Assembly: GCF_003003125.1 (NCBI RefSeq)
Contig: NZ_PVTZ01000001.1
Coordinates: 372,001 to 436,000, forward strand
Source: Laceyella sediminis
GTDB taxonomy: Bacteria > Bacillota > Bacilli > Thermoactinomycetales > Thermoactinomycetaceae
Length of the DNA stretch: 64,000 bases
Direction of reading: 5' to 3'
Part shown: positions 40,410-43,227 of the stretch, piece after piece
Numbering within the stretch: the stretch's first letter is position 1
Layout of the letters: each line of letters begins with the position of its first letter
Position numbers and translations under genes: made by a program
Notes under the pieces: generated by a model
What the model was told of the DNA's origin: nothing
Seen by the model: only the letters and a program-made list of their open reading frames with translations
The model's database searches: none

Positions 40410-40493
40410 CTAATCATTCTTATTTTAAACAATATCCCCCACCCAATAAAGAAAAGCTTGACAAGTCAGAGAAGAGGGGGAAGCAAAGCAAAA

Positions 40494-40521
40494 CCCACCT
40501 TCGCCGTTTAGCAAAGGTGGG
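40494..40521 (-). terminator. Terminator of the DD-carboxypeptidase gene
   Basis: CCCACCTT / AAGGTGGG stem with further pairing in the loop and TTTT on the minus strand. Confidence 0.8.
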
Positions 40522-40568
40522 TATACAACTTGGTTTCTACCATGTGGGCTGGCTTGGACAAAACTGGT

Positions 40569-43028
40569 TTACCACAACTTTTGGAAAAACCGCTCCAATT
40601 GCCCTGCCGGTTCGACCCGCTGGGTGATGCTGACTGGAAATGTGGTCATCATCTGCAAAGGCTTCCCACGGTATAACACTTGCGCTTCGCCGACAATCGC
40701 CCCTGCTTTGAGCGGAGCTTTCAATCCAGTGAAGAAGCGGACTCTGATCTCATACTGATCTCGCTCACCCCGGTGAATCGGCAAGCGAATGTCGTACTTG
40801 CTGACAACCGGGACATATTGCCCGTCCCCATTTGGAACCCGTAACTTCGCTCCTTGGATCACTTCACCGCGTTTTAACAAAGTGGCTGTTTCAAATTGAT
40901 TAAATCCATAATCAAACAGCTTCTTCGTCTCCAAGAAACGGCCATCTTCAGAGCTAGTGCCCATGACAACTGTGATCAGTCGGCGGCCTTCTTGTTGCGC
41001 CGTTCCGGTGAAGCAATAGCCAGCTGCTTGGGTAGAACCGGTCTTCAAGCCATCAACGCCAGGGTAGTAATGGTCAAAGCCTGGTAGCATGCGATTCCAG
41101 TTGACCACTTTCATTTGCCGTTCCGTCCCCGGGCGGAACGTATATTGGGAAACGGAGGTCATCTGCGTAAATTCGGGATGCTCTTGCAATAATGTTCGCG
41201 CCAGGATCGCAGCATCCCGCGCAGACATCACATGCTCCCCATCCACTTGCGGAGGATCAGGGTAATCGGTCATCTCCAACCCCGTCGCATTGCGAAAATG
41301 CGTGTTTCTAAGTCCCAGTGCCTTGGCTGTCTCATTCATCCGGTGCACAAATTGCGTTTCGCTTCCCGACACCCGCTCGGCCAAAGCCGCAGTAGCGTCA
41401 TTCGCCGAATATACAGCCATGCCCATGAACAAGTCTTTTACACTCATCAACTCGCCGGCTTCCAGATCGATCTGGGCTTCATTAATTCCCGCCACCCGCG
41501 GGCTAACTTGCACCATTTCATCCCAAGTCAACTTATTGTTGCGGATTTCCTCTAGCACAATGTATTCGGTCATCATTTTGGTCATGCTTGCTGGTGGGAG
41601 AGGTTGATCCATCTGTCTTCCGAAAAGGGGCAATCCTGTCTGATAATCCATCAGGATATAAGATTTGGCCTCCATTTTCGGCTCGGCGATCGGGACGTTT
41701 GGATCTACCTGATAGGTGATCAACAGCTTCGGTCTTTTGGTGATATCATCCACATAATCGCTGGAGCGGAAAGACTTGCGGTCATTGCTTTCCGTATGAT
41801 GGCGCAAAGAAATACCGTAGTTGGGGGTTCCGCTGTACCAGTTTTTGCTCAGCTCTGTCAAATCCCAAGCGTATTCCCCCGCACCGGCCACATTTGTTTG
41901 GGTCACCGCGGCTCCCACGGTCGGCTGATTCTGCCAGGTGAGCCCACCACTGGTCCACTCCGATGTGACCGGATGCACATCCACCTGCTCTTCTTGCGCA
42001 GTGGCGTATTGGTGCAAAAACAATTTAGCGTCCTTGATCTTTGCCCCTGTGGGAAGCGCGGGCAAATCAAATTTGAGATAAGTACGTGCAACGCCATAAT
42101 CCGCGTGGGTACCCGTAATCACATAAGGAAACAATCGATAATTTTGGGTGGGGTTTTTGCTGGAGACGAGGTTGTCATACGTCTGTTTCACCCCTTGCAG
42201 ACCCACTGTCGGGTCAATCACCACCGGATAAACCCGTTTCGGGTCTCTCAACCACTTGTCATCCGCTTTGATATCGAGATAAGTGACGCCATTTTGCTGA
42301 CGCAAGGCAAATTTCACCTTATGGGAAGAAGCGTCTTGCTGATCGTACATAAAAGGGGCGGGAACTTCAAAGACGGATTGTCCCTTCGCGTTGATAAACT
42401 GGATAGACCCGTCTTTTTGCAACTTTGGTTTGGCGTGTTTGGCTTTCAGTGCCATAGTAAAAACGGATCGGCCTGTGTACTTATGCAACACCCATTCTTC
42501 TTTGACGCCCGTAACTCCAACTTTGTAGACCAGATCCGTCCCTTCATACACATTGGGATAGCGAATGCCATGATCCAATTGTTTAACCGCTACCCGCTTG
42601 CCATCGATCAATCCGAAATCAACCTTCACTGGGCCTTGTTCAAACCGGATCAGCGAAGGAGAAGTGGATCGTCCGGCAAACGCAAAGCGGGTGGCATGTC
42701 CCAACTCGATATAAGTCATCCCTGCCCCCGCCGTATTGGCCTTCATTTTGGCTTTGCGTTGCTCCCGAATATCCATCCATGCGCCGTTCTTCTTATAATG
42801 AACCGGCTCTAAGTACTGCTCCGTGACATAGGTTTTTCCGTCGTTTTTGATGTAGGTTTTTGACTTTTCCGTCCGGAGTTCGACCAATTCCTTCACTTTG
42901 CCCATCGGTTCAGGTTTGGTTTTGTTTTGCGCGAAAACGGACGGATTGGGCGATAGAAACAACATGGCCACCATCGCAGTCAGCAATGGAATAGACAGCC
43001 ATTGGCGCCGCTTGGCAGGTCGTTTCAA
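40569..43028 (-). CDS. D-alanyl-D-alanine carboxypeptidase with WapA-like and DNRLRE modules
   Basis: An 819-residue exported protein. After a signal peptide (hydrophobic core WLSIPLLTAMVAMLFLS, cleavage near VFAQN) come: a region (about 40-275) like the N-terminus of WapA-type wall-associated proteins (YVTEQYLEPVHYKKNGAWMDI in part; VYEGTDLVYKVGV); a DNRLRE/CBM96-like beta module (about 280-445, ARTYLKFDLPALP; WTSGGLTWQNQP; YGISLRHHT); and a complete DacA/DacF-type DD-carboxypeptidase (about 455-819) with PPASMTKM (Ser-x-x-Lys), YSAND and LKTGST. The DD-carboxypeptidase trims pentapeptide side chains; the front modules probably anchor it to the wall. TTG 43028 is chosen because GAGGAG lies 8 bases upstream; a GTG at 43037 leaves no spacing. 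Confidence 0.88.
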   Translation of the reverse strand: MKRPAKRRQWLSIPLLTAMVAMLFLSPNPSVFAQNKTKPEPMGKVKELVELRTEKSKTYIKNDGKTYVTEQYLEPVHYKKNGAWMDIREQRKAKMKANTAGAGMTYIELGHATRFAFAGRSTSPSLIRFEQGPVKVDFGLIDGKRVAVKQLDHGIRYPNVYEGTDLVYKVGVTGVKEEWVLHKYTGRSVFTMALKAKHAKPKLQKDGSIQFINAKGQSVFEVPAPFMYDQQDASSHKVKFALRQQNGVTYLDIKADDKWLRDPKRVYPVVIDPTVGLQGVKQTYDNLVSSKNPTQNYRLFPYVITGTHADYGVARTYLKFDLPALPTGAKIKDAKLFLHQYATAQEEQVDVHPVTSEWTSGGLTWQNQPTVGAAVTQTNVAGAGEYAWDLTELSKNWYSGTPNYGISLRHHTESNDRKSFRSSDYVDDITKRPKLLITYQVDPNVPIAEPKMEAKSYILMDYQTGLPLFGRQMDQPLPPASMTKMMTEYIVLEEIRNNKLTWDEMVQVSPRVAGINEAQIDLEAGELMSVKDLFMGMAVYSANDATAALAERVSGSETQFVHRMNETAKALGLRNTHFRNATGLEMTDYPDPPQVDGEHVMSARDAAILARTLLQEHPEFTQMTSVSQYTFRPGTERQMKVVNWNRMLPGFDHYYPGVDGLKTGSTQAAGYCFTGTAQQEGRRLITVVMGTSSEDGRFLETKKLFDYGFNQFETATLLKRGEVIQGAKLRVPNGDGQYVPVVSKYDIRLPIHRGERDQYEIRVRFFTGLKAPLKAGAIVGEAQVLYRGKPLQMMTTFPVSITQRVEPAGQLERFFQKLW

Positions 43029-43162
43029 TTTCTTCACTCCTCTCTGGAACCCATGCCCCGTGTTGATGCATCCCTTTCTTGGGGTTTTAAGGGCTCAATT
43101 CATTATTCGGACCACCTTTGTATTTTTTTGCATCGGGCACGGCTTCCAACTGTTAAAAAATA

Positions 43163-43185
43163 AAAAAAAGCCTCAGTGCTGAGGC
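43163..43185 (-). terminator. Terminator of the M42 peptidase gene
   Basis: GCCTCAGTGCTGAGGC hairpin followed by T8 on the minus strand. Confidence 0.85.
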
Positions 43186-43227
43186 CCATTTCAATGATTT
43201 GCTTTTTCTCCACAACCGCCGCTCACA

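What the first reader, a model, noticed from the sequence alone, without database searches (positions are those of the whole stretch)
40569..43028. DD-carboxypeptidase fused to WapA-like and DNRLRE modules
DacA/DacF proteins are usually about 390-440 residues. This one carries about 450 extra N-terminal residues that look like wall-associated proteins plus a DNRLRE/CBM96-type beta module. It may be anchored to wall polymers and act at a special site, for example on the spore or septum. I do not know a described protein of this layout.
Basis: partly seen in the sequence, partly recalled or inferred. Interest (0 to 1): 0.6.

Follow-up and report, generated by a model that had tools for sequence, protein, structure and literature searches.

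The report
Wall-trimming enzyme wearing toxin's head
In Laceyella and one related genus, a copy of a normal cell-wall-trimming enzyme (DD-carboxypeptidase) has gained the secreted, wall-binding front part of a WapA/Rhs-type toxin protein, apparently in place of the usual membrane anchor; the parts are known, but the combination is rare and I found no description of it.

Summary
The gene (minus strand, 43037 or 43028 to 40569) encodes a signal peptide, a DUF7948-like domain, a CBM96/DNRLRE domain, a Peptidase_S11 domain with intact SxxK/SxN/KTG motifs, and PBP5_C. The first 410 or so mature residues are a defined module, 45% identical to the head of a 1926-residue WapA/Rhs-type protein in the same genome. 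The S11 half is a DacA paralogue; ordinary DacA, DacF and DacB are also present. Four of 42 genomes of the order (two genera) carry the fusion. It was not seen elsewhere in samples of about 400 Bacilli and 400 Bacillota genomes. Each half of the four fusions forms one supported clade, so one fusion event is simplest. Both halves are under purifying selection. Relatives without the fusion keep the two Laceyella flanking genes side by side, so the gene was inserted there. DacA's C-terminal amphipathic helix is cut short in Laceyella and, with PBP5_C, missing in the other genus. Best model (inferred): an exported DD-carboxypeptidase held in the wall by a toxin-family head instead of at the membrane. 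The spore/septum suggestion has no support here. New variant of a known kind; moderate interest.

The parts
40569..43028 (-). Whole gene: secreted DNRLRE/S11 fusion, 819 aa from TTG 43028 (822 aa from GTG 43037)
42930..43037 (-). Signal peptide (KRPAKRRQWLSIPLLTAMVAMLFLSPNPSVFA|Q)
   Evidence: read from the sequence: basic n-region, hydrophobic core, cleavage-like VFA|Q
42204..42917 (-). DUF7948-like N-terminal domain of the WapA-type head
41697..42203 (-). DNRLRE / CBM96 beta-sandwich domain of the WapA-type head
40953..41687 (-). Peptidase_S11 (DD-carboxypeptidase) domain; S481xxK484, S541xN543, K662TG (819-aa numbering)
40653..40895 (-). PBP5_C domain (absent in the fusion of the other genus)
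40572..40652 (-). C-terminal tail with shortened amphipathic helix (ends LERFFQKLW)
43168..43187 (-). Terminator-like hairpin between the upstream M42 peptidase gene and the fusion gene
   Evidence: no more such hits than in shuffled sequence
40493..40522 (-). Terminator-like hairpin after the fusion gene (13 pairs)
   Evidence: no more such hits than in shuffled sequence

Best explanation
A duplicated vegetative DD-carboxypeptidase (DacA/PBP5 type) lost its own signal peptide and gained, at clean domain borders, the exported head of a WapA/Rhs-type surface protein (signal peptide, DUF7948-like domain, DNRLRE/CBM96 domain). The protein is exported by Sec. The head binds a polymer of the cell's own wall and holds the enzyme in the wall. 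There the S11 domain removes the terminal D-Ala from pentapeptide stems, in wall layers that the membrane-tethered DacA reaches poorly. Shown here: the architecture, intact catalytic motifs, homology of the head to WapA-type heads, DacA ancestry, a single origin of the fusion as the simplest history, purifying selection, and a degraded or lost membrane anchor. Inferred: export, wall binding, enzyme activity, and the site of action.
For: Domains and motifs. Head 45-58% identical to heads of WapA/Rhs proteins of the order, including one in the same genome. Each half of the four fusions is monophyletic (100/100 for the head, 100/99 for S11), with S11 among the family's DacA-type enzymes. Own DacA (guaB, pdxS, pdxT, serS context), DacF (sigma factor and purine nucleoside phosphorylase context) and DacB (spmA, spmB context) are separate genes; contexts read from the sequences. 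dN/dS 0.117 overall, 0.139 for the DUF domain, 0.068 for DNRLRE, 0.073 for S11. DacA orthologues mostly end ...RLFFRxxGDxxxxWF; the fusion ends LERFFQKLW (hydrophobic moment of the last 18 residues 0.36 against 0.59 for own DacA), and the other genus's fusion lacks both PBP5_C and the helix. In S. suis WapA the N-terminal region with DNRLRE and LysM is described as cell-wall binding (PMC12704120).
Against: Binding by DNRLRE is demonstrated for alginate (PMC9971899) and, by its entry title, for chondroitin sulfate (8wab), not for bacterial wall polymers; only one of six basic alginate-contact positions aligns with a Lys/Arg here, and the essential Arg36 does not. In S. suis, LysM, which is absent here, may do the wall binding. 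The DUF domain is basic here (net +15), but in the own WapA-like head the two domains have net +2 and 0, so charge is no general argument. A 10-residue C-terminal helix remains in Laceyella and might still touch the membrane. Nothing shows expression.
Confidence: 0.6

Rival explanations
1. The head drives release or cell-to-cell delivery, so the enzyme acts outside the producer, on neighbouring cells' peptidoglycan, like a WapA toxin with an enzyme in place of the Rhs shell and toxin.
For: The head is that of WapA/Rhs proteins, including a likely polymorphic toxin in the same genome whose last ~180 residues are only 44% identical between species.
Against: No DUF6531, no YD/Rhs shell, no variable C-terminus: S11 is 97.8% identical between species. 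The flanking genes are M42 and 4HBT genes that are adjacent in relatives without the fusion. The enzyme is a DacA paralogue.
Confidence: 0.1
2. The DNRLRE/DUF7948 head binds an external polysaccharide (matrix, plant or fungal) and serves adhesion, the S11 part being a second, independent activity.
For: Known CBM96 ligands are external polysaccharides (PMC9971899, 8wab); DNRLRE domains of the order are also fused to GHL10 glycosidase-like domains.
Against: A peptidoglycan-specific enzyme tethered to a foreign polymer would be kept from its substrate; in the other genus the head is the only possible anchor left.
Confidence: 0.15
3. The enzyme is still mainly a membrane-bound DacA-type enzyme and the head is a spacer or a passenger.
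For: PBP5_C and a short C-terminal helix remain in Laceyella; no ligand of the head is known.
Against: The head is constrained (dN/dS 0.07-0.14) and kept in two genera at 57-58% identity; the other genus lost PBP5_C and helix but kept the head.
Confidence: 0.12

Closest known systems
DacA / PBP5-type DD-carboxypeptidase (peptidase S11, class C low-mass PBP)
   Same: S11 domain, PBP5_C, three catalytic motifs; nearest relatives are the family's DacA-type enzymes (50-54% identity)
   Different: About 410 extra N-terminal residues; C-terminal amphipathic helix shortened; separate from the true dacA gene
WapA / Rhs-type wall-associated proteins of Bacillota
   Same: Signal peptide plus DUF7948-like plus DNRLRE head, 45-52% identical to Rhs proteins of the order
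   Different: No DUF6531, no YD/Rhs repeats, no variable toxin end; an S11 enzyme instead
CBM96 (alginate-binding TM6-N4, 7vbo; chondroitin sulfate-binding 8wab)
   Same: DNRLRE profile and predicted beta-sandwich (Z 10.8 and 13.0)
   Different: Most alginate-contact basic residues not conserved; ligand unknown
SPOR-domain DD-carboxypeptidases of Alphaproteobacteria (from memory, not tested)
   Same: An S11 enzyme with an added envelope-binding domain
   Different: Unrelated binding domain; other phylum

Membership tests
Peptidase S11 (DD-carboxypeptidase) | S11 catalytic domain over the curated cut-off | tested here: met
   236 bits against 27.6
Peptidase S11 (DD-carboxypeptidase) | SxxK, SxN and KTG active-site motifs | tested here: met
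   S481/K484, S541/N543, K662-T-G invariant in 25 aligned sequences
Peptidase S11 (DD-carboxypeptidase) | Penicillin binding and D-Ala release | not testable with these tools
   needs protein
Canonical DacA (PBP5) orthologue | PBP5_C domain | tested here: met
   48.6 bits, 715-795; absent in the other genus's fusion
Canonical DacA (PBP5) orthologue | Full C-terminal amphipathic membrane helix | tested here: not met
   Tail ends LERFFQKLW, about 9-10 residues short of the usual RLFFRxxGDxxxxWF
Canonical DacA (PBP5) orthologue | dacA gene context (guaB, pdxST, serS) | tested here: not met
   A different gene of the genome holds that place (L142)
WapA / Rhs wall-associated protein | Signal peptide and DNRLRE-bearing head | tested here: met
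WapA / Rhs wall-associated protein | DUF6531 and YD/Rhs repeats | tested here: not met
   none; present in L118 and L116
WapA / Rhs wall-associated protein | Variable C-terminal toxin | tested here: not met
   S11 97.8% and C-terminal part 96.4% identical between species
CBM96 / DNRLRE domain | Profile match over the cut-off | tested here: met
   64.7 bits against 26 (Pfam), 130 against 34 (NCBIfam)
CBM96 / DNRLRE domain | Alginate-contact residues Lys10, 22, 25, 27, 31, Arg36 | tested here: inconclusive
   Only Lys10 has a basic partner in the profile alignment; register is unsure by one residue around Arg36
CBM96 / DNRLRE domain | Carbohydrate binding | not testable with these tools
   needs protein

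The most novel reading that the evidence does not exclude
A polymorphic-toxin delivery head has been joined to a housekeeping peptidoglycan carboxypeptidase so that the enzyme edits the wall of neighbouring cells rather than the producer's own wall.
Probability: 0.07. Interest if true: 0.7.

Novelty: new variant of a known kind. Interest (0 to 1): 0.4.

Why it matters
It is a natural experiment in which a toxin family's head has apparently been reused to relocate a housekeeping wall enzyme from membrane to wall. Comparing DacA, the fusion and the headless enzyme would test directly whether DNRLRE heads bind the bacterial wall, which is mostly assumed for WapA proteins, and what a DD-carboxypeptidase does away from the membrane.

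Tried and rejected
Linker or misassembly: rejected. Common fusion: rejected; in the order's 42 genomes the roughly 140 strong S11 matches lie in frames of 308-511 residues except the four fusions at 716-841, and the sampled class and phylum searches gave none further. Conserved operon with the neighbours: rejected; the flanking M42 and 4HBT genes are adjacent in relatives and the fusion lies elsewhere in the other genus. Repeats that would mark a recent insertion: only weak chance-level matches. RNA elements: none. Structure prediction: the S11 half is confident, the head only partly; the DUF7948-like domain got no match above background. A viral-contig scan with the DNRLRE alignment could not be run. 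Papers naming both DNRLRE and carboxypeptidase: one, on S. suis WapA, which does not describe such a fusion in the passages read.

Full report
What is there. The finding lies on the minus strand of a Laceyella genome (96% protein identity to the L. sacchari copy). The frame runs from 43037 (GTG) or, more likely by its ribosome-binding site, 43028 (TTG) to 40569. From the N-terminus it encodes a signal peptide, a DUF7948-like domain, a CBM96/DNRLRE domain, Peptidase_S11 and PBP5_C. The catalytic Ser481-x-x-Lys484, Ser541-x-Asn543 and Lys662-Thr-Gly are present and invariant in 25 aligned sequences. Terminator-like hairpins lie on both sides, so the gene is probably transcribed alone; the number of such hits is no higher than in shuffled sequence.

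The head. Residues 30-445 are not linker. They are a module that occurs, at 45-52% identity, at the front of Rhs/WapA-type proteins of the order, including a 1926-residue protein of the same genome with DUF6531 and ten scored Rhs repeat stretches. The same module heads a DUF2690 protein in another family and varied surface proteins across Bacillota, 27 of 398 sampled genomes. The DNRLRE domain matches solved carbohydrate-binding modules 8wab and 7vbo by profile (5e-9, 6e-6) and by predicted fold (Z 13.0 and 10.8). The model of the head is of moderate confidence (mean pLDDT 62). The residues that bind alginate in 7vbo are mostly not conserved, so the ligand is unknown. In S. suis WapA the corresponding N-terminal region with DNRLRE and LysM is called the cell-wall-binding region (PMC12704120).

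The enzyme half. The genome has ordinary DacA, DacF and DacB genes in their usual contexts (contexts read from the protein sequences, DacA beside guaB, pdxS, pdxT and serS). The fusion's S11 domain groups with the DacA-type enzymes of the family. DacA-type proteins of the order mostly end in a conserved amphipathic helix, RLFFRxxGDxxxxWF; the Laceyella fusion stops about ten residues short, and the other genus's fusion has lost the helix together with PBP5_C.

Distribution and history. The fusion occurs in both Laceyella species held and in two of three genomes of one other genus, four of 42 genomes in the order. The search of 398 Bacilli and of 398 Bacillota found no other; these are samples, and the thresholds (1e-88, 1e-85) could miss a very diverged fusion. 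Head and S11 halves of the four fusions each form one clade (100/100 and 100/99), so a single fusion is the simplest history. In Laceyella the gene sits between an M42 peptidase and a 4HBT thioesterase gene, 2.9 kb apart; in seven relatives of the family without the fusion these two genes are neighbours 31-263 bases apart (G004, G008, G011, G016, G018, G019, G021), as in a genome of another family. So the fusion gene came into this site; in the other genus it lies elsewhere. Both halves are under purifying selection (dN/dS 0.07-0.14 by domain, 0.29 in the C-terminal part on few changes), whereas the own WapA-like protein's last ~180 residues differ strongly between the two species (44% identity), as expected of a polymorphic toxin.

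How it probably works. Export by Sec is inferred from the signal peptide. Because the head belongs to wall-associated proteins and the usual membrane anchor is degraded or lost, the simplest reading is that the head holds the enzyme in the wall, where it trims pentapeptides. Wall binding, activity and the place of action are inferences. A toxin-like role on other cells is not excluded, but the fusion lacks the Rhs shell and the variable toxin end and its enzyme is a conserved DacA paralogue. There is no evidence for a spore or septum role.

Comparison. It is a member of peptidase S11 by the tested features, derived from DacA but not a canonical DacA (anchor and context not met), and not a WapA (no Rhs part). 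I know of S11 enzymes with added SPOR domains (from memory), so an S11 enzyme with an envelope-binding domain is a known kind; this head and its toxin-family origin are the new part. The paper searches found no description, within an open-access library only.

Noticed in passing
L118:2281-8058 (same genome, G000:C1 near 242-244 kb): A 1926-residue WapA/Rhs-type protein; its last ~180 residues are 44% identical to the L. sacchari counterpart while the rest is 95-99%: probable polymorphic toxin.
   Followed up: partly
L175:3672-5462: The same head fused to DUF2690 in a genome of another family, lying near the same thioesterase-NUDIX-aminopeptidase-M42 gene block that holds the S11 fusion in Laceyella.
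   Followed up: partly
window:41697-42203 (DNRLRE domain): The bacterial DNRLRE/CBM96 domain shows profile and predicted-fold similarity to animal TGF-beta/BMP prodomains (4ycg Z 11.4; profile E 0.002), suggesting a shared fold or ancestry.
   Followed up: no
L123:6622-8643, L177:3896-5833, L178:2594-4744: DNRLRE domain fused to glycosyl hydrolase-like GHL10 in several genomes of the order.
   Followed up: no
L122:7297-8700: A broken copy of the head module (split over several frames) in genome G017.
   Followed up: no
L189, L193 (viral contigs): The whole DUF7948+DNRLRE head also occurs in proteins on viral contigs, and PHROG 37549 (virion structural protein) matches it.
   Followed up: no
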